From the NCBI GenBank assembly GCA_030077755.1, contig JAQJZZ010000011.1, positions 2,728,001 through 2,792,000 on the forward strand: DNA of 64,000 nucleotides. Direction: 5' to 3'. Made by a program: the position numbers and the translations under genes. The notes under the pieces are model-generated. The model worked only from the letters and a program-made list of their open reading frames with translations, was not told the origin of the DNA and did no database searches. The DNA comes from Filosporella fistucella (taxonomy: Eukaryota; Ascomycota; Leotiomycetes; Helotiales). Of this stretch, positions 1,132 through 64,000 are shown piece by piece (positions within the stretch are counted from its first letter, which is position 1; each line of letters starts with the position of its first letter).

Positions 1132-3600
1132 TTAAAGTTCAATCAAGCTCTCTTCCACAACTTTAGGTTGTATGGAGTGTTGAGGAGCTGAAGGGAATGA
1201 TTCTTGTGTATATCCATTATAAGTTCCCCCGGCCTGCCATGTCTGAGGAGCAGGGGTTTGTTGTGCCTGCCAGTACGGAGCCCCCTGCTGTTGGGGTGCA
1301 TACTGCTGGGGAGGTTGTACTTGTTGATGTGGTAGAGCTTGCTGAGGTGGTGGTGCCTGCTGCTGTGGCGGTGCGAATTGTTCTTGCGGCTTTTGAGGTT
1401 GTCGGATGGATTGCATGGGAGATACAGGCTGTTGAGCAGTAGCATGAAACTGTTGTGGAGACTGGTGAGTTGGAGGGTATTGTGGTTGATTAGGTTCAGG
1501 GCCAGCCTGTGGGGGTGCCTGGCTACCATTGTTGTAGTAAAAAGCGGCGTTGGGGTCAGCTGATGGGGTAGTAACAGGCTCAGATGGGCCATATCCTGGG
1601 GGTTGTGAAGGGGCATTCATCAGCGGTGGGGCTTGTTGATTATGTACTGCCGCAGGGACTTGGGAATGCTGTTGAGGTGTGCTTTCTTGGGAATATGAAG
1701 GCTGAGAAGGGTGTTGACCCGGTGGAGCTTGGGCTTGCCAACTCGCTGTTCTTTGTGGCTGGGACGGTTGGGGTGGGTATTGTGAATAAGTTTCAGGACG
1801 TTGCTCTGGTAAAGCATACCCAGAAGGTGCCACCGAAGCTCTCTTTCCTGTCTCTGCATATTGTTGTTGAGATGGGGCGTAGGAATAGGTTGATTGGGGT
1901 CGGCCATAAGGTTCTGGCTGGGGATTGCCTGTGTAGAAGCTCTCCGCGCCTCCGACTGCTACGTTCGGATTAATTGTAGGATACATGGTAGAAGTCGGTC
2001 GCTGAGGTGGAAGGTTATAACCTCCAATGCTGTGTTGGTTGTATGTATTTGACAGACGTTCCTCGAGCATCCGGTCATAATAACGAACAACAGTTGATAA
2101 TTTTGCATGCAAGTCGAGAAGTGCATCTGGGGCTGTTAGCTTCCGATCGCACATTTTGATTCGATTCTCTTACCATGCTTGCTCATTGTCTCCCCATAAG
2201 TCCGGGCTAGCTTTGGTCGGAGTTTTCCGATGCTCTCATATAGCTCTTGAATTTGGGGTTCTCGTAAAATTGTTCCAGGGGGCTGAGTCTGAAGGCGATC
2301 AACTAGAGTGGAAAATAGATTGATATTCTCCGCTTCCACGGCGGTTAACTCATAATCGTGCTTTGGAAGTGCGATAGGACCACTCGACTTGGCACTCGCG
2401 GCTTGCTCTTTTATTGTGACTGCATACTTCTTCTTTTGTTCCTCCATATCCGCTAGGGACGCAGCAATCGCAGCTTTCAGGTCGTCATCTTCCTCTTCTG
2501 CTGGTTTGTTTGCGGAAGCTTTAGATGCACCATTTGTCGTAGCAGATGATGCACTAGGTTGAATCTTGGCCTGTGGTACGTATCCAGCTCCCGAATGACC
2601 ATTTACTTCTTCCAGACTCATCGCCAAGGCTCTCTTGAGATCCTCATCAAATCCATCATCGACTCGGGCACTTCGAGGCTGCATCGAGCTTTGTGGTCGG
2701 TGGTGCTTGTGAGTTGGGGAACGAGGGTGGCCAAAGGAGGATCCTTTCGTTGACTTGTCCGTCAACTTGATATAGCATCCATCGTCGACTCTCACTGGCT
2801 GGATTATGCCTAGGTGTGGAAGAGGTAGAACTTTCGCGGAACATTGTTGGTCAAAGACATTTCCGCAATTCCTGCAATGATGCTTTCGGTTGGTAAAGCT
2901 GAAGGCCGTTCGACATCTCATACAGACATCGGAATCAGTCCATTCGGGAGGCTAGAAATCACGATCAGCGACACCCCATGAAATAGCAAAACTGGGAGAA
3001 GGACGTACAGCGCTGCTGACCAACATGCTTTTAGCAACATCAACCTTTGGGGGGAAATTGAAGCCATCCCGCTGTAAACTTCTGTATGTTTCCCCAATAT
3101 AGGATAGCTCGTATTGTCCCTCACTTGCTGTCGCCCATGTCTGTATTAGTTCCAGAATTTTGGCCTTGACTTCCTCATTCACCGGTGCAGCTCCATATAC
3201 TTTTAAAAGTGAAACCAGATTGTCCATGAACTCTCGAGATGCGATTTCGACAAGGAAATGTGATCCACCATTCTTCACGCATGTATCTGTAAGCTGTGGT
3301 ATGATTGTCAGTAAAAGTTCGCAGAGATTTGGAGGGTCCGGCTGACATTCAATGCGCTGAGTTGGAAGTTTGGATTCTTGTTGCCTATGCGCTTCTTGAG
3401 TGAGCGCATCGCCTCCTTCGATCCCACTGTCTTGGACCTTATGACATCGGAAATTTCGAGGTTAAGGGCAATATCTTCCCTGTAAAGAATCAGTATAGGG
3501 TGACACAGCAAGATGAGGATGAAACTTACAGAGAACTAGAAGTTGCCTTCTCGATCTGCTCGTCGATCTGAGATGAGGAAGCAAACCAGCCCGCCATCAT
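1132..3600 (-). CDS. VPS27: ESCRT-0 subunit Vps27/Hrs (VHS-FYVE-UIM)
   Basis: Vps27 binds PI3P and ubiquitinated cargo on endosomes and recruits ESCRT-I for multivesicular-body sorting. Exons 3600-3530, 3479-3347, 3293-3009, 2951-2174 and 2126-1132 join in phase to give about 753 aa. The order is: VHS domain (residues about 1-155, with [14 protein letters not shown]); FYVE zinc finger (about 160-230, with [18 protein letters not shown], the R(R/K)HHCR signature); two ubiquitin-interacting motifs ([14 protein letters not shown] and [14 protein letters not shown]); a helical core segment ending [20 protein letters not shown]; then a long Gln/Pro-rich tail of about 300 aa. A second in-frame ATG at 3597 gives MAGWFASSS, the more usual start. 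The 47-bp last intron restores the conserved KHDALLDLH join. Nothing suggests it is broken. Confidence 0.93.
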
Positions 3601-6430
3601 GTTGGAACACGAGTCACCGATGTGAAGGAGATGGAAAGTATTGCGAGTGTGCGACCAAATATGTGTGTGCGATAGGCAGCTTATTGATGGTGGGTGTCGT
3701 GAGATGTATTGAGTTACGATCTTGTAGGTGGTTGTGGTTTTGATTGTAATGGTATTGCGTAGCTTGGTTCAGGCAGAGAGCTTGAGGTCCAGGCTGGTAG
3801 TGTGGAGTGAGTGCCTTGTCACTTTCACTGCAGCGCAGCCTCGCTTCATTTGGCGTTCTGTGGTAAAGGAGCCTCACCACGGGAATGTCCGGCTGCGATG
3901 AACACTTCCCTTAATTTCACAAGAAGTCTCATGCATGAACTGAAAGGGCGAATTTGGAATGAGGAGCATCATTTTTCTTCTCTAAGTAACGTGTCACAAA
4001 CAAATTACTTCTCTTGAACGACCAAGATGCTGCGTTCAGTTGTTGCTTTCCTTGTCGATCGAATCAAAGGCTCGAGTGAAGCCTAAACATAACCTGAGTT
4101 GTGCAGCCTAGAAACCAACATGTTACCAAAATCCTTTGGCGATGCTTCAAAATTTTCAAGCTTGTTGGGCAAGATACCTTTCGGCATATTTCCTCATCGT
4201 TTCGCCTCTGTCCTCACCAGATTGAGCCACAGATGAACTCATCTTGAGTTTTTTAAATTGCCATTTATGCGGGCCAACATGGATCTCCTACTTTTCTTGC
4301 TATTTTCTCTTATTATTTTGTTCGCGATTCAAGGCGCGCCAACTTGCAATGTCTCTATTTTCGTTGCCTAGGGCGAAGGCATTCCCTGGCAGGTTCAAGG
4401 ACACTTAAAACATTTGGCGACGATGAAGCCAAATGCCTTTCGTGTTTGCTACCAACCAAAGTCCCGCGTACGACCTCGCAACCCGGGCAGTTCTTCGATA
4501 GCCCAAATATCACCCCGCTCAAGAAATATCTCAGGAATCTATACGGTTCTATGCCTCGTAGAACAGGGTTTCGGGATGATTCTTCTGTTAGTACACCTTC
4601 ACCACCAAACTGGAGAATCTAATACTCCGCGTCTTACAATCCAATTTTCCAGTGGAGCCGCATCGGTATTTGTCTAATTGAATCTATAGACAACTTCAAT
4701 CCCAAATCGAAGCATCATAGACCCGCACGTAGCTAACAGCCCGCTACCTGTTACCCTGGCTGATTTTGATAGAACCGGAAAATTATGGGAAATTGCAGAA
4801 ATGTACGTTCGTGTTCACTGGCAGCTAAGTTTTGGGTACGAGCAAGAATGGAAAGCACGGAAACGCCTGGAAGAGTGGCTGGAAGACATTTTGAGCTAGG
4901 TTGTGGTTCGGGAGGTCGTCAACAAGCGTGGGAGTACTTGAAAAAAAGTTCTTATTTGTGTACACTCCTCTTCGCCGCCCGAACCACCAAGTTTCAGCAC
5001 TCGGGACAAGCAGATTTTCTAAAACACCGCTAACTTGATAGAGCAGGGTCTGGGCGACGCTTTTCTGACGGGTGATCCGAACTATTTTTCAGACTTTAAA
5101 CAATTTCGTGATGAATTGAGAGACCGTGGATCATACCGGACGAAAAGGCTGATGGGCAAGAAAACTATCGTCCTCTGGGAACTCACAGCGATGGTATTCC
5201 AATGTATACCCACACAGCCTGCACATTTTGATCACTCTGTACCGACATCTCCCAGGCTGTTTCCCTCGATGAGCTGTCAAGTGGGGTAGAGAACATCAGA
5301 ATCGCTGCCCACGATACCACTAGAGCGCCACATGATGGCAATCTGCGAAAGCGCAGGTTGACGTTCGTCCTGGGCGAGAAAGATATCGTGGAGAGAATGG
5401 TAGTAGGGACTTGAAGACGAGGCAGCTTTAGGAGCCATATCACGTAATGAAGGGGATAATGAAGAGCTCATGTGGTATCTGTCGACACATTTGCGTTCTT
5501 GGGAACATCATAATACTTTTCCGTCTTGATACTAACAAAATTTCACAATTGGCAAGGAAATGCACGTGAGATTGTCCCTAACCGTGCAGAAGGTATTTAT
5601 ACGAAGTAGGAGAGATATGTTTCGAGATAGAACTACCTCGGCGTGTTATTGAATACCATACTTCGACTTGGCAACGTTGGACTTCGCCATGTCAGAAACT
5701 AAATTGAACAGACAAATAATCATTCAATTCTTTCTCGATATCGGCTATCTTCCGTACCTAGTCGGGCACAAAAATTTCGGTCCCAAGAATGAAAGATTAC
5801 CTACATACCTTGATTTTGATGCTAAAATTATAATCTCTGTAACCTAATTCATATTTGCGCACCCCTCCCCAATCAAGCATAGCCCAGCCGCGACACCCTG
5901 GTCAAAATGACGAGGTTGTGGTGTCTGGAATGTCGACTGCCTCGAAGAATGTCTGTGGCGCCTAAGAAACGACAAAGTTAACCACGATTATTTCGTTCTC
6001 CCACTTCTTGCGATTTCAGAGATAATTATTTTGCCATCATTCGTTACAAACGAATGGTTCGCCCCCTCGAACTCGCTCTTGAAATCGCACCTGCGAACGC
6101 GGCGTTTTACACAGCCTCCAAACTCAGACAATATCACTCAGCGAGGGATACGGAGAAGGAAGAAATTGGTCGCAATATCGAGTTAAGGAGATCCAAATAA
6201 GCTCAGCTACGAGTAATTGCAGCCTACAATTCACTCGACTGGCCTCTCAATTTATATCCGCCGCCGATTTTCTTGCCTGTACGAAAGGCCTCCGCCCGCA
6301 GCCTACTTCGAAGCCCGACCTCAATTCGTTTCGCTCGAATACGCCCCATACGAGATATCCTGTGCCTCAAAAACGATAGTAACGTCTGCCACATTATGCT
6401 CTACGAAGAGCCTTTGTTGAAATCCTCGAG
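3601..6430. other. 2.8-kb gap with possible decayed coding fragments
   Basis: No gene is convincing here. Several plus-strand stretches read like protein but cannot be joined: a hydrophobic leader opening MDLLLFLLFSLIILFAI at about 4279, a block about 4690-4898 reading FDRTGKLWEIAEMYVRVHWQ, and a block about 5035-5195 containing GDPNYFSDFKQFRDELRDRG. I cannot name a family for any of them. They may be the remains of one gene, poorly spliced exons, or chance. The last few hundred bases must carry the promoter of the deubiquitinase that starts at 6431. Confidence 0.3.
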
Positions 6431-9400
6431 ATGAGTCCCGCTGCCATTGACGGCCATACTCACACTCGCGGCTCTTCTTTGTACAACGGTGGGCCGTTTG
6501 CCATGGCGAATGGAGGCAATTACAAAGACTCGAAGGGGGCACGGATATTTCCACATCTAGACGATCTGACAGCTGTCGATATGGAAGCAAATGTTAACTG
6601 GTCCTTAAGAAAGCTTCTTTCGGAAGCAGAGAAGTGTGCGAAGCAAGCAGACACTCATCTTGACTTTCGCCGTCCAGATCTGGCCTTACAGGATTACATC
6701 AGGGCTTCAACTGTGGTTGTGGAGGTTATACCTCGACATAGGGATTTCCCATCACTGAATACCGACCGTGGCGACCTTCATCGCATATATGTTGGCTTGA
6801 CAAAACGAATCACGGCTCAGCATCCGAAATTTGCTGAAGTGAAGGAGCTCATAAAGGAGAATAATCTGAGGAGTGGCGTATCTCCAAAATCATCGGCGAA
6901 ATCATTACCTGGGGTACCACAAAACGACATTGCAAATGGCATACCCAGCCCTTCTGCTCTGGAGGCCAATGGCTCTCCACGCAAACAACCCCCCGCCATT
7001 CAACCCAAACCAAATGCACTCCACGGAAACGCAATTCAGAGTGGACACAAAAATACTGTCGACTCTGATCTTAGTTTGAGGTTTGCTAGGCTGAGAGGTT
7101 CTGACGCAGGTAGCATCCAGCAAGATCCTCGAATAAATACTCGCCCAATATCAATTCCTAGCCAGCCTCCATCTCAGGCTCCCCTGCCTTCTTCCCGGCC
7201 AACTTCCTATACAAGCTCAGTACGTTCTCTGGGTCCACGTGAAATGCCATCCGTTCCGACGACCATCCCGGGTGCCAAAAAACCATCCTTGGTCACGGAT
7301 ATTCCTGCCATGCCTCGCGCTCCCGATGCGATTTACAGTCCAGCTCGCGGTACTGAGCCCGGACCGTCTATTGATGACCCATCCAGTGTTCCTCGCAGCT
7401 CCTCCTATCTTGGAAGTGGAAGGAAAGGATCCGCTCCACCTATATCGAATGTCGGTCCCAGTCCCGTGCCGTTTGGAAAACAGAAGCTGGTCTCCTATAC
7501 ACACTCCTCTCTGAGCCATGAAGATCTTCAAAGCTATCAGAAGCCAGTTGAGGTTGTTTTACCAAACTCCACCACTGTCACAGCAGAGAAGCTTATGGAA
7601 TATTTAAGACTTGGTTCACATTCTCTCAAGATTCTTCTAGTTGATCTTCGTAGTCGTGAGGAGTACGAAAGTGGACACATTTTATCCCAGTCAATCATTT
7701 GTGTCGAGCCAATTACTTTGCGTTCCGGAATATCTGGGGATGAATTGGAAGACAGCATGGTAATCGCGCCTGATAACGAGCAACGTCTTTTCGAACAACG
7801 TGACGAGTTTGATCTGCTTGTCTTCTATGATCAATCATCGAGTGAAATCAAGCCAACAAGCTTAGGAAAAGACAACAGCAGCATATTGCGAGACTTCTCT
7901 AAGGCAGTAGACGAGTATGGCTATAATACCCGATTAAAAAGAAAGCCAATGCTTCTTGTGGGTGGCCTGGATGCTTGGGTCGACCTGCTTGGACCGAATT
8001 CGTTGAAAACATCACTTACCAGTGCTTCTGGAATATCATCAACATTGTCGAAGAGAAGAAAGGCGCGTCCCACACGTCTGTTATCTGGGAATGCGGAGAA
8101 GAAGTGGGATTTAGCATTAACTGTTGAGTCATCTGAGCCAAATCAGGTTGAGTCTGGGGAGGATTTCAATTATGCCAGAACCACAGAAGACTTTTTCCGC
8201 AGGTTTCCAGAAGTTCCGATTGTCCAAGAGTCTATGGTTTCCCAGGGAGTTGCTGCTTTGACTCAACACATTCATCGAGAAGATTTGTCTACACCAACAC
8301 CTCCAGCTCGGCCACCTCCGGCACTACCAAGGCAGAAGTCTAGTGGCATTTCCGATCGCGGCCTCCTTGTCTCTTACGCCCATTCCAATGCTAATGGCGC
8401 TGCCAGCACAATAACGCCAACTCCCTTCGTTCCAGGTCTCACGGGACTCAACAATCCAAGTGTGTACTGTTACATGAATACCGCGATTCAAATGATCAGC
8501 GCAACACCATTTCTACGAAATGTACTACGGGACTATAGGAACCTCCCAAGCATTCCACGAAAGCGGGAGGAGCGATCTCCCAATCCTCAACTAATGGCTC
8601 GAGGCTTGGGCAATCTGATTGCTCATCTCTGGAGTGGGCAGAACAGATATTTGATGGCATCAACTCTTATGGTAGGTCCTCCAACTTTTCGTGATAGTAC
8701 AGTTCTAACGTCATCTAGAGTTATATCAATGTTCTGCACTCCAAAGACAGCTCCAATATGCGTGTGAGAGAGTCAGCTTTTGGAGGCTCCGCTCGAATGC
8801 ACGATATGGGAGAATTCGTTACTTGGCTATTCGTGATTCTTGAGGATGAGCTGAATCCTGGTAGATTACATGGCAACAGTCGAGATGCTTTGACTGGCAA
8901 GAATGGCGATCCCAGGGACAAATTCACCCGGTGTCATCCAACAGATCATATGGGCCACGCAACTTATTGTTTGGAAGCAATCAAGTACATCTCAGAAGCC
9001 TACCAATCCGTGATATCCCAACACATGTTGACATTCGTACTTCGAATGACGACTTGTGGACGTTGCGGTACAATTCAACCGTTCTGGGAATCGACGCCAT
9101 TTTTGATGGCAGATCCGCCCACCCGCAATCCATACACTCTCCAGGAGTTACTCCGGAACGACTACGGCCCTGCTCAGCAGAATAGGGATTATAAGTGCGA
9201 AGTGTGTCCTAAGATGCCAGATTCTGATCAGAAAATCACATTCCTGAATAAGATTTGTCGTATGCCAGAGTATCTTTGGATACAGGTCAACCGATTTGGA
9301 GATTATAATGACGGAGGCGGTAAAAATCAATTCAAGTTGACGCTTACGGAACGCGTCAATCTGCGCGAGTTCTACACGGATCTATGGGACAAGGCTCGGA

Positions 9401-55372: not shown

Positions 55373-58300
55373 ATGAGAATCTTCCAGTTGTCGCTGCCAG
55401 CGATCTTCTCTTGCCATGCGGTCCAGGCTGCGTGGAATATTGCACCTCACCCAGAAAATTACCCAGATCTAGCAGTTATTCCCGATGAAGGACCAGTTGT
55501 CAGTTTTCTCCCTCAAGCCTCCGAGAATTGTTTCTGATTGAATGACCAAAGCCTGCTCCGTCATATATGGTAGATAACACCAACAATTTTTGGAAAGTCG
55601 CCCCTGATAAAGGTATGAGAAATGCTCAATAGAGATGGACATGTCTGATTTGATACATAGGAATACAAAATGGTCCAGTCTGGGATCATTCTGGCAGCCT
55701 GGAGAATTACATGTCAAACTTGCATTCCAACTTTTCTCATAGCTACCCAAAAGACGCTCAGCCTTTCGGAAATTCATCTCAAAAGAGGGCTGTCCAGGGT
55801 GTGGATGCAGGCTACTGGCTTACTGAACTTGGACCTTATGGCAAGGTCAGCCTATCTCAACTAACTTCCTTTAATTTCCACACTAACTCCAGCTAATTTT
55901 GAAAGGCACCAATTGTGTCAACTCCATCCAATTACTCTTTCTGGCGGGATGTCACCGATTTCGGTGCCAAAGGAGACGGTAACCACGATGATACTGAAGC
56001 CATCAATGCTGCAATTTCTGCTGGAGATAGATGTGGACTGAAATGTGGGAACACCTTCTCCAAGGGAGCAATTGTCTACTTTCCTGTGAGTTGTTTCGTG
56101 TCTTCCCCCTCCCCTAAATCGGACATATGACATCTCTAATTATTCAAAGCCTGGAACATATAAGATTTGTACCCCAATCATTCAGTGAGTAAATTTGCGG
56201 AAGTTGGTTTGCCTAAGCTGACAATTTATCAGGTTGTACTACACGCAGTTCATTGGTCATCCTTCCTTCCGCCCCGTCATCAAGGGATGCAGCAACTTCA
56301 CAGGCATCGCTCTTGTCGACACTGATCCATATATTCCGGGCGGGTACTTCTTCCGACCTCATCTCACCATATAGGCTTCACTGACCATATAAACCCTCCA
56401 GAAATGGCCAAAATTGGTACACCAATCAAAACCAGTTCTTTCGTCAGATCCGAAACTTTGTATTTGATCTCAGAGATATGCCACTCAGTACAAAGGATCA
56501 TGATCAGCCTCTGGTACCTACCGGTATTCATTGGCAGGTGGCACAAGCGACCAGTCTGCAGAACTTGAAATTTATCATGCCCAAGGGAACGGGTATCACC
56601 CATGTTGGCATTTTCACCGAGAATGGAAGCGGAGGTTTTGTTTCCGGTTCGTTCTCCTTGCTTCTCATTGACTGGAAGTGTGCCCCATTCGTTGATCTCT
56701 TTACTGACATGCGTAGATATGGTATGAGATGGCGCTTTTGAGCGGAAAATGTGACGAAGGGCTAATATACTACGTAGGAATTCGAGGGTGGAAATATTGG
56801 ATGGAGAGCTGGTTCGTTCACCACTCATCTACAACCTTAAATATCACACTCATTGATACGGAACAGGATCTCAACAATTTACTGCCATGAATCTGAAATT
56901 TACCGGGTGCAATACTGCGGTTCAGATGATTTGGGACTGGGGCTTCAATTGGCAAAGAGTAAGTCGACTTCATTCCGTGCACTCTCGCCATACAAGACCA
57001 TACCTCAATCGGTTTTTAATGATTATATAGATCGAGGTCAACGGTGGCGCTATCGCTTTTAATGTCAGTGTAACAGGGGGTATTGACGGGCAAGGAATTG
57101 GATCCGTATCCCTGATAGATTGCACCTTCAGCAATGTTCCCATCGGAATTCTAACCAGCGAGCGGAAGAATGCACCACCAAGCATTGTACTTGACAATCT
57201 GGGTGTGGCAAATGTGGGTGCAGTTGTTAAGACGATTGAAGGGAATACTCTATTAGAAGGTACACTCGCTAGCTTGATTACGTGTTCTCTCTGACCAAAC
57301 ATTAGGCGGCTCCAAGGTGATTCCCCTTTGGGCAGCTGGTCGTCGGTACAATGGTGGAAATGGCTCCTACCAAGTTGGGCCTGTGATTGGTGCACCCAAG
57401 AAACCAGCTGCGCTTCTCCAGAATGGAAAACTTTTCACCAGGTCACGACCGCAGTATGAATCCTTTGGCCGGGGGAGATTCCTCGTCGCTACCACTGACG
57501 GCGGTTTGAAGAATGATGGAACTGGGGATCAAACTAAGGGTATAAATGCATTCTTAATGGATGCGAAAAATCTGGGGAAAATTGCGTATTTCCCTGGTGG
57601 GATTTACAGCTGCGGTGGGACCGTAACTATTCCTACTGGATCTGTTGTCCAAGGTTCGAGTTGGTCTCAAGTAATTCCTACATGATCTTGAGTTTTTTTA
57701 GTAATCCCACTAATGTCCCTCCAGCTCCAAGCAACAGGGCCATATTTCGGCGATATGAACAAGCCTAAAGTCTTCATCCGAGTAGGTGAAAAAGGTGACG
57801 TGGGCAGTATGGAAATAGTTGAGATGCTATTCACAGTCAAAGGCCCCACCGCCGGTGCCATTATGATGGAGTGGAATGTACACGAGGATAGGCAGGGCTC
57901 TGGTAAGTCATGTTTCTGTTTGAACCGCTATCAAACTAATTGAAAAAGTCGGCATGTGGGATTCCCACATTCGAGTAGGAGGCGCGGACGGATCCGACCT
58001 TGGGTATGCGAACTGCCCGAGAGGAGGATTCAGCGACAAATGTATTTGCATGTCCCTGCTTCTTCACGTTACTTCAAAGGCTACAGGCTATTTTGAAAAT
58101 GTGTGGACATGGATCGCTGACCAGTAAGTCATTTAAAGCCCGCTGCCTTGCAGCATAAACTGATTGCCATGGAGTGATAACGACAAAGTATCTTACCGCG
58201 TATTGGACCCTCAGACCTTGATGATTAGCCTTTATGGTGCCAGAGGAATGTTGATTGAATCGCAAGGGCCTTGCTGGTTCTACGGAACAGGCTCAGAACA

Positions 58301-61300
58301 TGCTGTTCTCTACCAATATCAGCTCTATAAAGCGAAGAATGTATGTCTCCACTTTCTCTGATCCAATCTTGCCATGCCCATCCCACTGACAAATAGCCAG
58401 ATATATCTTGGACATCTCCAAACTGAAGCTCCGTACTTTCAGCCTGTCCCTGTTGCACCGGCTCCCTTCAACTCCAGTATCGGGACATTTCCAGGCGACC
58501 CCACGTTCTCCGATTGCAAAACAGATAGCTGCAGAGTTGCATGGGGAGTTCGAATCGTTGATTCTTCGGATGTCCACATTCACAGCGCTGGCTTGTACTC
58601 TTGGTTCAACAACTATGAAAAGAAGCAAGCATGTGTCAAGAATGAGAATTGCCAGGAAAAGATTTTACAGGTGAAGGGATCGCAGAATGTTGCTGTGTAT
58701 AATCTGTTCACCAAAGCCGTGCTTGAAATTGCTTCGGGGGGGAAAGGGTATGACTATCCTCACCAGCAGAGACGTCGCTAACCCTATCTCGCAGTAACTC
58801 CATATCTCGCAATGATTCTCAAAGGTAACTTATTCTTATATTTTCATCCCTAGTCATTGGTCAACTCCTTGTACTAAAATAAATAGTGGATATACTACAG
58901 AGGTAAGTGTATGGTTCCCGCTCGACCAAGACGGTAGTGATGCCGAGGTCGTATATGTCGGAACTGAGATCTATGGACCAACTCACACCTTTGGAGCTAC
59001 TGCACCATTCATTGCCGTTTTTCCTCCTAGTTCCATCCCAACAACAGGTATTACAGTCGGGAACTACACAACCTCGTTCGAGGTAGGCCATACGACACGA
59101 GTTGTAAGCCAAGGTACTACTCAAACAGTCTTCATAGTCACAACTACCACAGTTGTCATCACAATCGGTATTATAAGTACTGATACATTGTCGATGTCGA
59201 ATATCAACGTAACGAATGGTCAAGGGAGTGGCATCATTACCCTGTCTCCTTATATTCCACTTGGGACTTTCCAAGTTCCACTCACTAATGCAGATGGTGC
59301 GGTCACAACACGAACCGTAAATGTGCCAGATTGGCCATCCATCTTGAAAGGGCCGCCTGAAGGGTGGACTCCCGTTTCATCGGCCTCCTGGGGGCAGATT
59401 ACAGGTGCACCAACTTCAAGAATCAGCACAGGCAAGACTCCCATTTCAGAATTCACGGGCCAGGAATTGTCATCTATTTGGAACTTCGATGGTGATGTCA
59501 GGAAGAAGTCTCCAATCATTCATGTCTGTCCTCCAAATTCTCTCTACATTGATGCATGGGAGGTCGATATTGTTCTTCCCGATTGTTACGGCACCACAAC
59601 TCTCGATTGGTATTGCCTTCCAACACGGACAATTTCACTCGATGCACCTACGTCTGTTTCATTCTCACTTGGATGTGCACTCTGGACTGGTACAAGTACG
59701 AAACTTGATTACCCGACTCTTACAGAATGGCCTAAAGCAACACTTATCCCAGTTGCTGGGGATGTGAGTGATGATGACACGAAGTCGAAGAAAAAGAGTA
59801 AATGCAGGGCATGGTTCTTCTTCGTAAGTTGCGGTTCGTTTGTCGGGATCATTTACTAACGAAGAGCAGATATGTATCGGCTGGATTGACCTGGAAATCA
59901 AAGGATGGGATTGGGGAGAATTTCCTATCGGTGTCATCCTGCCTCCGTGAGTCTGCCACAACGGACGACATCTTGAATACTGACTTTAAACCAGGGGTCC
60001 TCCTCCAACTATCAAGTGGCCGCCTGGGATTACCATTAAAGGAGATTTACCTGGACCGTGGCCCCGTATCACGTGAGTACTATCTTGAAGCATTCTTCCC
60101 TCTTGCTCACATCTGCGTAGTATAGGAATAGACGGTGGAATTACCTATCCACAAGATCAGCCCACTGAATGCAAGACTCAAACGGCATCAGCTTGCAGGA
60201 CCACAACAACTCTTGAAATGTCGGTTAATGGCGGGTCTACCAAAACCACAGCGACGAAAACGATAGAAACTTGTGCTACCATCCTGGGTTGCAACGTGAA
60301 GGACGACGGTACCCAAGCTACGACTACTGACGCGTGTACAGTCTCGACAGTGACAATCTTAAATCGAGATGTTCCAACCCCTATTGCATCCGTGGTAGCA
60401 CGGCAAGCTGGAAAGAAAAAGTGTCCAACCGTCAAGGTCGAAGACGCAGTCATATATCCAGTTAATCCTAAGGATACTGGTAAGCTGATATCTTGGCTCA
60501 AGAAAACACCTAGTACCGGGACAAAATACTGGGACCGGACGGGAACCAAACAGGTGGTCGCAAATAAGCTTGGTGGATCGGGATTTACTGCATTCTTTTA
60601 TGTGGAGAAGATGTCGTCCACGGATGTCGAGATCCTAATGAAGGAGGGTGGCGAGTGGTTTGGAAAAGTTTGTTCCCATATTGCTAGTTCGTTATGACCT
60701 TGCTGAAAGCTAACACCATTCTAGACTGTCGATTTTGCATACCAATTCCAAACTTGGAAAAGAAGACACATGGACGGCTCTGATTCTGCTAGCGGCTCAT
60801 CTAAACGTTCAAACAACGACTTCAACATGACTGGCACGATCGATCCCCGGAGCGGTGTTCAGAAACGCGACGCTAAGCCAACGTCCCAGGATCCTGCCGA
60901 CTGGGAACTTTCGCAAATCTCGACTCCTCAAGGTACTTCGTACGATTGGGCTCGGAGCCCGGGAATATATAACTATGATAGCTCGGCTGGTTCGGGGCAG
61001 GTAGTTTATGCCATCGAGGACGCTTTCTGGGATAAACATCCAGTAATTAAACCCATACCAAGTTGAGCTTAGCTAATGCAGAACAGGAATTTGATGGAAA
61101 GATCGCAGCTGGACTTTTGGAAAGTAATACTCGAGGCAGGCAGCTTAACATCAACAAAAATGCGCAACTTGGGACATCCCATGGGAATACAGTGCTATCT
61201 AAAGTTGGCGGCGCCAGACTTGGTATTGCCAAAAAAGCGAAAATGGTCATCATGCTCAACACGGCTTTATCCTATGTCGAAGATAATGGAAAGGTTGATA

Positions 61301-63209
61301 TCTACAGCAAGTGCACGGAAAATGTTCTGGCTAGTTTGCTGTTCGCGCTGGATCATATCAAGGGTAACAATGAAGGGGGAGTCAATAATGAAGGCAAATC
61401 TGTGATCAACTTCTCGGCTTCGGTCGATGGGGACACGGTACCACCAGCATTCTTGAAAATGATGCGTAAGTAATTGGTTAATTCGTTGCCGATATTGTTA
61501 GCTAATATGACACCCAGTCAAGATTTTCAAAGCTTTGGACGAAATGAATGTGGTTATTGTTGCCTCTGCCCATAACGAATACAGTAAAATCGATTATTCC
61601 GACTTCGTAAATGGTAAGCCCACGAGGGCGAAAAAGGTCCCTGACAAGAAGGACAGCGTAGATGGCACTTACCCTGCAGTAGTAAGTAGAAATCAACTCT
61701 CACTTCGTTGTTTCTCTCCTTTTTGCAACATTAACTCTTTGTCGTATCCACCTGCTGACTAAAGACTTGTCGTAGTGGGCGAATCCTCGGGGTGGGAACT
61801 ACCAACTTCCAAATCTGATATTAGTTGGAAGCACAGATATAAACACCAGAATCGCCCAGTATACACCATACCAACCTTGGATGGTGTTTGCACCTGGCGC
61901 ATGGTGTAATGCCGCTAATCAGATAACTGGATTTGGGAAGGGTGACGGTAATTCATTCGGTAAGTAGAACCTGCCTACTATATGATTGAAGGAGGTGGCA
62001 ATGCTGACGAAAATAGCTACTCCTTTGGTAGCAGGCTTGGTAGCTTACTACCGTGGTTTACCTTCCAGATGGGCTACAGACTTCCAAAGTCCGCGCAATG
62101 TGAAAGCGTTCGTGATGGCCATGCAACGCAAACTTGATTTCGACGTTCAGATTGAACCAGGCGAGAAAGATCCTAGCTACAGGGACCGCGTTGCATTTAT
62201 TTGGAATGGCATGGTTGGGAAAAAGAACTGCCTTCTAGAGTCCAAGTGGGCAACAACTTCAGGATCTTCAGGGTTTGGAGTGGGGTATGAGAAAGATGAA
62301 AATTTGTGCCCGAAGTTCAATACAGACCTCAGCAAACTTCCTACGGAACCGCAGGGGGGATCTGAAGGTTCTTGTATCAAAGGAAGACAGCTTAACGGAC
62401 AAGCATGCGACAGTGGTCTCACTGTCACATATACGCCAGGTCCAGCATCCCCGACTTGTTTGGCGAATGGTTGTGGTACATTATGCACAGGTTTCTGGTG
62501 TCAAGCAAATCCGACTGGATACCCTCCAGACTTCCAAGATCCGGCCGATCCTAGCTATGGCAACTCTCTCACTCGTACAGCTACTAAAAATCCCAACCCG
62601 GCGACCACGAATAATAGTGCAGCTCCCACTCCAACATGTGATGATGCTTGCAAGATGGATCGGGGATATCCCTGTACAGAACTACAAGCTGGGTTTGACA
62701 GGAACTCACCAAATTGTTGCGGCAGTGGGACATGTGGAACATGCGCTACCCGGAACAATGCCCCTCTCTGCTGTGCAACACATTCATGCGGCTGGGCGGG
62801 CGAGGTTTTTAACGACCACCCAGTCTCCAGTACCTGTCAACTCTCTGGCTTCTTAGCTACAAATGTCAACTGCGCCTTACCATTCTTCATCGCATGTGAC
62901 TCAGGTAACGGCCGCGGCTTCTACTTCGAAGTTGACGGAAAGAAGGGCGGTTGGACATGTAAAAACTGCAATCCTATTGGTACCACCGGCTTTTCGAATA
63001 CTGATATCGGAATGCACGAACAGGTTACCCTTTCTTGGGATGGAAAGACCGATTGTCATTGCACGGTAGACGGGGAAAAGGTCGCTGGAACGGTCACGGA
63101 GCATTATTCGGAGGATTTCTTTGGATTTCACTCGGACGATACGGTGATTTGTGCCTGTAAGTTTCATTGCACTAAATGGGGGGTCTTTAAAGCTCCTGGA
63201 AAGAGTTGA
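55373..63209 (+). CDS. Secreted fusion of GH55 beta-1,3-glucanase and subtilisin-like S8 protease
   Basis: 26 exons stay in phase for 2,147 codons. Boundaries: 55373-55498, 55552-55612, 55661-55845, 55906-56085, 56150-56184, 56233-56343, 56402-56646, 56717-56721, 56778-56811, 56867-56958, 57031-57259, 57306-57670, 57725-57902, 57949-58123, 58175-58340, 58401-58747, 58795-58824, 58887-59823, 59870-59946, 59995-60072, 60121-60667, 60725-61042, 61087-61465, 61518-61681, 61776-61959, 62017-63209. A signal peptide (MRIFQLSLPAIFSCHAVQA) leads to a GH55 double beta-helix (about 110-845): DFGAKGDGNHDDTEAINAAI, AIVYFPPGTYKI, and the second-half start FLVATTDGGLKNDGTGDQTK. A Ser/Thr/Pro-rich linker follows (about 860-1400). 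The S8 domain has Asp1500 (VVYAIEDAFW), His1539 (LGTSHGNTVL), Asn1653 (VIVASAHNEY) and Ser1748 (GNSFATPLVAG). A Cys-rich tail of about 400 aa ends it. Known: GH55 cuts beta-1,3-glucan from the end. Inferred: one secreted polypeptide attacks glucan and protein of walls. Confidence 0.82.
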
Positions 63210-63450: not shown

Positions 63451-64000
63451 CTATGGCTTTAGGCTAATACATCCCGCTGAACTGCTATCTTCCTCAAAAA
63501 TACCTCCAAAGATGACACCTTCACTGATCCCACTTGGCTGCTTTCCACTTTTCGTGATATCAGAACCGGGATTGACTGGTTTCTTCAAGATGCCGTAGTG
63601 GTATTGTCCTTGTCCGCTGACGCTGTTGGTCACTGCCTTGCTGACGGAAGCTAGAGGATTCGTTCCGTTTGAGTAGTAGACTTGAGTAGTTCTATTACGA
63701 CGTCAGTGCCTCGACCTTTTACTTATGAAAACCGCCCCCTGCTCCAGGAGATGGAGTTATAGTGGAATAGATATAGTAGCAACATACCCTTTATTAAAAT
63801 CAACAGTAATCCCAAAATTATGCCACGTTCCCGCCGTAAACCTCGTACTAAAAATTGTATTCACAGGTTTCGTATTCACGTTTCCCTGGAGGAACAACGT
63901 ATCTGGATTTGCTCCCCCGGGGTTCCCACCGATTATACTTCCGTATTTCAAAGCGATTTGGTTTGTGGAATAATCATTTGATTCGAGGAAAAAGAGTTGG
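63451..64000 (-). CDS. GH131 beta-glucanase, C-terminal part (5' end outside window)
   Basis: GH131 enzymes are secreted bifunctional exo-beta-1,3/1,6 and endo-beta-1,4 glucanases of fungi. Two exons are visible: >64000-63788 and 63691-63451, joined in phase across a GT-AG intron. Motifs are TRFTAGTWHNFGITVDFNKG, TTQVYYSNGTNPLAS, GQGQYHYGILKKPVNP, and the ending GISEGVIFGGIFEEDSSSAG followed by CISLKP. These fit the end of the GH131 catalytic domain, with no cellulose-binding module after it. It converges on the GH55-S8 gene with about 240 bp between stops. The catalytic N-terminal half is not visible. Confidence 0.82.

What the first reader, a model, noticed from the sequence alone, without database searches (positions are those of the whole stretch)
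55373..63209. GH55 beta-1,3-glucanase fused to a subtilisin-like protease in one 2,146-aa secreted protein
Seen: 26 exons keep phase from a signal peptide through a whole GH55 double helix, a Ser/Thr-rich linker, a subtilisin-like domain with Asp1500/His1539/Asn1653/Ser1748, and a Cys-rich tail. No stop codon, promoter-like gap or second signal peptide separates the two enzymes; the join runs through small in-phase exons at 58795-58824 and 58887-59823. Known: GH55 and S8 enzymes are normally separate secreted proteins used together in mycoparasitism and wall lysis. Inferred: a single secreted wall-degrading machine, or a self-processing proenzyme that cuts its linker. The D, H and N boxes differ from classic subtilisins (IEDAF, TSHGN, ASAHN), so activity is uncertain.
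Basis: partly seen in the sequence, partly recalled or inferred. Interest (0 to 1): 0.88.

Follow-up and report, generated by a model that had tools for sequence, protein, structure and literature searches.

The report
Fungal glucanase-protease precursor with shared cassette
One fungal gene encodes a secreted glucan-cutting enzyme joined to an unusual subtilisin-like protease; the same join is common in related fungi, and the protease part also occurs behind a chitinase in the same genome, which points to a reusable module on wall-cutting enzymes.

Summary
An independently rebuilt 26-exon model at 55373-63209 gives one 2,146-aa protein: GH55 glucanase, linker, prodomain-like region, subtilisin-like (S8) domain, Cys motif, C-terminal domain. 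It is not unique: 65 of 120 listed homologues match the S8 segment, and S8 presence is stable on the GH55 tree.

What looks new is the module. (1) The linker-S8-Cys cassette also follows a GH18 chitinase in this genome (contig C14) and in Colletotrichum; three S8 introns match in position and phase. (2) The catalytic-acid position is Glu in 59 of 68 family rows, Asp in 22 of 22 ordinary fungal S8; His, Asn and Ser are kept. (3) A homologue's S8 is predicted as a pro-subtilisin-like zymogen, and dibasic sites concentrate just before S8 (54 of 66 proteins), so the precursor is probably cut in two. (4) C-terminal ends vary strongly.

I read it as a processed precursor for attacking walls, probably of other fungi. 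Protease activity and target are untested.

The parts
55373..63209 (+). whole gene, 26 exons, 2,146 aa plus stop
   Evidence: splice model with 25 GT..AG introns, no internal stop; full-length homologues
55373..55435 (+). likely signal peptide (about residues 1-21)
   Evidence: hydrophobic N-terminus read from the sequence; no signal-peptide program was run
55807..58810 (+). GH55 double domain, residues 112-850
   Evidence: PF12708 two stretches; solved GH55 enzymes 5m5z E 2e-169 and 3eqn E 5.1e-167 over 112-865
58296..58298 (+). Glu715, conserved; aligns with a putative catalytic Glu of PcLam55A (role recalled)
   Evidence: E in 119 of 119 aligned rows
58425..58427 (+). Glu738, conserved; aligns with the putative general acid of PcLam55A (role recalled)
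   Evidence: E in 117 of 119 aligned rows
56717..56721 (+). 5-base microexon
   Evidence: needed to keep the frame through VSDMEFEGG; matches homologues
58795..58824 (+). small in-phase exon joining GH55 to linker
   Evidence: the join is matched in homologues with and without S8
58888..60439 (+). linker region, about residues 856-1325
   Evidence: matched in 120 of 120 homologues and in two GH18 proteins
60440..60757 (+). prodomain-like region, about residues 1326-1412 (intron 60668-60724)
   Evidence: corresponding region of homologue P0121 predicted as beta-alpha-beta-beta-alpha-beta and aligned with pro-subtilisins; no Pfam I9 hit and no sequence-profile support
60758..60868 (+). junction with dibasic sites K1413-R1415, K1428-R1429, K1448-R1449
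   Evidence: dibasic density 1.79 per 100 aa against 0.18-0.54 in other segments, 54 of 66 proteins; shuffles mean 22.6, maximum 33 proteins
60989..62117 (+). S8 (subtilisin-like) domain, residues 1490-1783
   Evidence: PF00082 41.2 bits; fold of homologue P0121
61016..61018 (+). Glu1499 at the catalytic-acid position
   Evidence: E 59, D 7, A 1, gap 1 of 68 family rows; D in 22 of 22 ordinary fungal S8 rows
61180..61182 (+). His1539, catalytic base position
   Evidence: H 66, gap 2 of 68
61574..61576 (+). Asn1653, oxyanion position
   Evidence: N 67, gap 1 of 68
61953..61955 (+). Ser1748, nucleophile position
   Evidence: S 65, A 1, gap 2 of 68
62415..62564 (+). 50-residue Cys motif, residues 1883-1932
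   Evidence: found in 112 of 124 proteins, with or without S8
62565..63206 (+). C-terminal part, residues 1933-2146; last 130 residues variable
   Evidence: no match at E <= 1e-3 to the last 130 residues of the other tails compared; residues up to about 2010 do match several homologues

Best explanation
A secreted precursor for attack on cell walls. The GH55 part cuts beta-1,3-glucan. The C-terminal part is a subtilisin-fold zymogen with its own internal prodomain; it is released from the glucanase by a kexin-type cut at the dibasic junction and/or by its own cut after the prodomain, so that one gene delivers a glucanase and a protease together. The protease uses, or evolved from, a Glu-His-Ser triad instead of Asp-His-Ser. 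The linker-prodomain-S8-Cys cassette is a module inherited from a common ancestor and also carried by a GH18 chitinase; the variable C-terminal ends suggest that the last part meets different targets. Shown: gene, architecture, conservation, shared cassette, Glu, dibasic enrichment. Inferred: cleavage, activity, target walls (probably other fungi).
Against: The sequence-profile test of the prodomain against I9 was negative (probability 1.2%, E 0.043) and Pfam gives no I9 hit. 12 of 66 proteins have no dibasic pair in the fixed junction window. Asp-to-Glu may make the protease weak or inactive. The fold was predicted on a homologue, not on the window's protein. 55 of 120 homologues lack S8, so S8 is not needed for GH55 function. 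No transcript, protein or activity data.
Confidence: 0.55

Rival explanations
1. A wall-boring carrier like a polymorphic toxin: the GH55 or GH18 head opens the wall of a rival, the S8 is mainly a self-processing protease, and the variable C-terminal end is the released effector.
For: Two different wall hydrolases carry the cassette. The last 130 residues of 53 S8-bearing proteins fall into 18 clusters, 216 of 1,378 pairs homologous, against 9 clusters and 525 of 1,176 pairs in 49 without S8. One tail model has weak similarity to the secreted fungal proteins PevD1 and Alt a 1.
Confidence: 0.2
2. A dead protease: the S8 domain has lost activity and serves as a binding or scaffold domain on a glucanase.
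For: Glu at the acid position in 59 of 68 rows; S8 is less conserved than GH55 in 63 of 63 comparisons.
Against: His, Asn and Ser are kept almost without exception (66 of 68, 67 of 68 and 65 of 68, the rest gaps but for one Ala), and the zymogen-like prodomain is kept in the predicted fold of P0121.
Confidence: 0.2
3. Gene-model artefact: two neighbouring genes joined by mistake.
For: No transcripts were available; the linker is long and Ser/Thr-rich.
Against: All introns are GT..AG and the frame is open; 65 of 120 independent homologues show the same join; the GH18 gene has the same cassette and introns.
Confidence: 0.03

Closest known systems
GH55 beta-1,3-glucanases with solved structures (5m5z; 3eqn, called Glucan 1,3-beta-glucosidase)
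   Same: Residues 112-865 align end to end (E 2e-169 and 5.1e-167); two conserved Glu.
   Different: The solved chains are 757-758 residues long; here an N-terminal extension, linker, S8, Cys motif and tail are added.
Proteinase K-like fungal S8A subtilases (ver112 3f7m, proteinase K)
   Same: PF00082, subtilisin fold, His, Asn and Ser boxes.
   Different: Glu at the acid position; about 31% identity at most typical level even within its own family; internal in a larger protein; no Pfam I9.
Already deposited GH55-S8 proteins of Pezizomycotina (for example P0002 Podospora conica, P0017 Corynascus, P0022 Podospora anserina)
   Same: Same domain order over 87-94% of the query for the best full-length hits.
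   Different: Only 38-47% identity for most full-length hits; different C-terminal ends. Named as glucan 1,3-beta-glucosidase or pectate lyase superfamily protein.
GH18 chitinases with chitin-binding modules (subgroup C, 'killer toxin-like')
   Same: The C14 gene and P0145 carry the same linker-S8-Cys cassette.
   Different: Head is GH18, not GH55. The subgroup C descriptions I saw (PMC12954445 passages) name CBM18 and CBM50 but no protease.
Pro-subtilisins (3whi, pro-Tk-subtilisin, EpiP 3qfh)
   Different: There the prodomain is N-terminal; here it lies behind a glucanase and linker.

Membership tests
GH55 | Two pectate-lyase-like (PF12708) halves and end-to-end alignment with solved GH55 enzymes | tested here: met
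   PF12708 two stretches, 257.5 bits; 5m5z and 3eqn over 112-865
GH55 | Conserved catalytic Glu (role recalled from PcLam55A) | tested here: met
   Glu715 119 of 119, Glu738 117 of 119 rows
GH55 | Beta-1,3-glucanase activity | not testable with these tools
   no assay
Peptidase S8 | PF00082 over the curated cut-off | tested here: met
   41.2 bits against 21.8
Peptidase S8 | Subtilisin fold | tested here: met
   [not shown]
Peptidase S8 | Asp of the Asp-His-Ser triad | tested here: not met
   Glu1499; E 59, D 7, A 1, gap 1 of 68 family rows; with strict spacing E 46, D 7, other 11, no
Peptidase S8 | His, Ser and oxyanion Asn | tested here: met
   H 66, S 65, N 67 of 68
Inhibitor_I9 prodomain | sequence match to PF05922 or to I9 profiles | tested here: not met
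   no Pfam hit; hhalign probability 1.2%, E 0.043, control 0.11%
Inhibitor_I9 prodomain | beta-alpha-beta-beta-alpha-beta fold placed as in pro-subtilisins | tested here: inconclusive
   topology and joint alignment in the P0121 model support it; not tested on the window's protein
Polymorphic toxin-like carrier | conserved front, variable C-terminal end | tested here: met
   18 clusters among 53 tails, with the caveat of gene-model errors
Polymorphic toxin-like carrier | toxic end and matching immunity gene | not tested
   not sought

The most novel reading that the evidence does not exclude
A clade of subtilisin-fold zymogens with a Glu-His-Ser triad that acts as the built-in processing unit of modular fungal wall-attack proteins: interchangeable wall-hydrolase heads (GH55 or GH18), a shared linker-prodomain-S8-Cys cassette, and interchangeable C-terminal ends that are the delivered effectors.
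Probability: 0.25. Interest if true: 0.85.

Novelty: new variant of a known kind. Interest (0 to 1): 0.58.

Why it matters
[quoted passage not shown] The shared cassette on GH55 and GH18 suggests a general fungal way of making wall hydrolase and protease from one precursor. It also gives a testable idea for the poorly understood long C-terminal parts of large fungal glucanases and chitinases. Database names such as glucan 1,3-beta-glucosidase hide the protease.

Tried and rejected
Gene-model artefact: rejected by homologues and by the GH18 copy. A unique fusion: rejected. Asp1500 as catalytic acid: a first alignment put the acid column at residue 1500 (E 42, D 19, other or gap 5 of 66 rows); adding 22 ordinary fungal S8 proteins moved it to 1499. 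With strict spacing of 7 to the HxEF His the count falls to E 46 and D 7 of 68, so Glu is the common state but the exact number depends on the alignment. The 22 ordinary S8 rows are the 24 hits less P0121 and P0138, which belong to the family.

The C14 alignment was run without composition adjustment or low-complexity masking, so its E-values are flattering in the Ser/Thr-rich linker; the P0145 comparison used the default adjustment (5.8e-50). L028 S8 pieces gave no Pfam hit one by one; the profile search of the whole genome did find PF00082 there (C14:777776-778060, 24.4 bits).

Print: ten searches listed no title or abstract that describes a GH55-S8 or GH18-S8 protein; I read passages or one section of nine relevant papers, not whole texts, and subscription papers are not held. 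The survey PMC5371821 removed genes with ambiguous active sites as pseudogenes (section 7), so such proteins may have been dropped there. The species of the window was not identified.

Full report
Observation. The result is 26 exons from 55373 to 63209, 25 introns of 44-94 bases that all begin GT and end AG, 2,146 residues and one terminal stop. A 5-base exon at 56717-56721 is needed to keep the frame. Pfam finds PF12708 in two stretches and PF00082 at residues 1490-1783 of the same protein, both over their cut-offs. The GH55 part aligns with the solved enzymes 5m5z and 3eqn from residue 112 to 865, and two Glu at positions that I recall as catalytic in PcLam55A are kept in 119 of 119 and 117 of 119 rows.

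The fusion is common. A search with the whole protein listed 120 of 139 hits. All 120 match GH55 and linker, 65 of 120 match the S8 segment (P0117 only at its front end), and 101 of 120 match the tail segment. The named sources include Sordariomycetes, Leotiomycetes and Onygenales (names, classes recalled). The other 55 have the linker followed by the Cys tail with no S8. On a quick GH55 tree of 119 rows the S8 label needs 4 changes, against a mean of 39.5 in shuffles, with 0 of 500 as low; some apparent losses may be incomplete gene models. In the window's genome the S8 segment matches only this gene and one place on contig C14, while GH55 matches lie at roughly ten further places.

The cassette is shared with a chitinase. 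The C14 place (L028) encodes a GH18 domain (172.4 bits) with a chitin-binding module next to it. Behind it lie stretches that align with window residues 837-1507, 1631-1719 and 1750-1953 (25-31% identity). A Colletotrichum siamense protein, P0145, has PF00704 and PF00082 and aligns with window residues 873-1016 and 1136-1944 (5.8e-50 for the latter). In the S8 part of window and C14, three introns agree in position and phase: after the His-Pro of the D-box (phase 0), before the KIF segment (phase 1) and within the Ser box (phase 1) (read by eye). The acceptor of the first C14 intron is uncertain. This agreement at low identity indicates common descent of the cassette.

An unusual active site. 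In an alignment of 68 family rows with 22 ordinary fungal S8 proteins, the catalytic-acid column is Asp in 22 of 22 ordinary rows and Glu 59, Asp 7, Ala 1, gap 1 in the family. His is kept in 66 (2 gaps), Asn in 67 (1 gap), Ser in 65 (1 Ala, 2 gaps). A count by strict spacing gives Glu 46, Asp 7, other 11, no. The earlier alignment without ordinary rows read one column further. The C14 copy and P0145 have Glu too. Of eight other S8 loci checked in this genome, seven matched a D-box pattern, all with Asp; one did not match the pattern. The S8 domain is less like its homologues than GH55 in 63 of 63 comparisons (medians 31.0% and 61.4%).

C-terminal ends. A 50-residue Cys motif is found in 112 of 124 proteins. 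The last 130 residues of 53 proteins with S8 form 18 clusters, and 216 of 1,378 pairs are homologous; for 49 without S8 it is 9 clusters and 525 of 1,176 pairs. Among pairs with GH55 identity of 75% or more, 62 of 89 keep a homologous tail; at 60-65% only 20 of 400 do. The window's last 130 residues match none of the compared ends, though residues up to about 2010 do match several homologues (P0060 to about 2068). Wrong gene models may inflate the variety. A predicted tail domain of P0138 has only weak fold matches.

Reading. The best-supported mechanism is a precursor that is cut between glucanase and protease, so that one gene supplies both. The evidence for the cut is the dibasic enrichment and the zymogen-like prodomain; the cut itself, the activity of the Glu-type protease and the target are inferred. 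Rivals are a toxin-like carrier with released ends and a dead protease domain; neither is excluded.

Known and new. Proteins with both domains are already in the databases under glucanase names, so the finding is not a new fusion. In ten literature searches of the open PMC library I saw no paper describing it; I read passages or one section, not whole texts. PMC11593635 (abstract and passages) names two triad types for subtilisin-like proteins, neither with Glu in the acid position and His as base. I therefore call it a new variant of a known kind.

Noticed in passing
L028 (own genome C14:774000-783900), minus strand, about 2531-7940: Second gene with the same cassette: chitin-binding module, GH18, linker, S8 with Glu at the acid position, Cys motif and tail.
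   Followed up: yes
window 56717-56721: A 5-base microexon in the GH55 part.
   Followed up: partly
own genome, GH55 matches: About ten further GH55 places without a match to the S8 segment; the genome is rich in GH55.
   Followed up: no
[not shown]
   Followed up: partly
L001 (own genome C2:1428777-1429658): S8 match with a kexin-like D-box, so a kexin-type protease is probably present.
   Followed up: partly
window 1-52040: Neighbouring open frames look ordinary for an ascomycete: Vps27-like, ubiquitin hydrolase, SLAC1, transcription factors, tyrosinase, polysaccharide deacetylase, DUF2264, GH5, cytochrome-b5 desaturase (20 of 30 frames of 170 aa or more scanned).
   Followed up: no
window 63451-64000, minus strand: Start of another gene or frame cut by the window end; not identified.
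   Followed up: no
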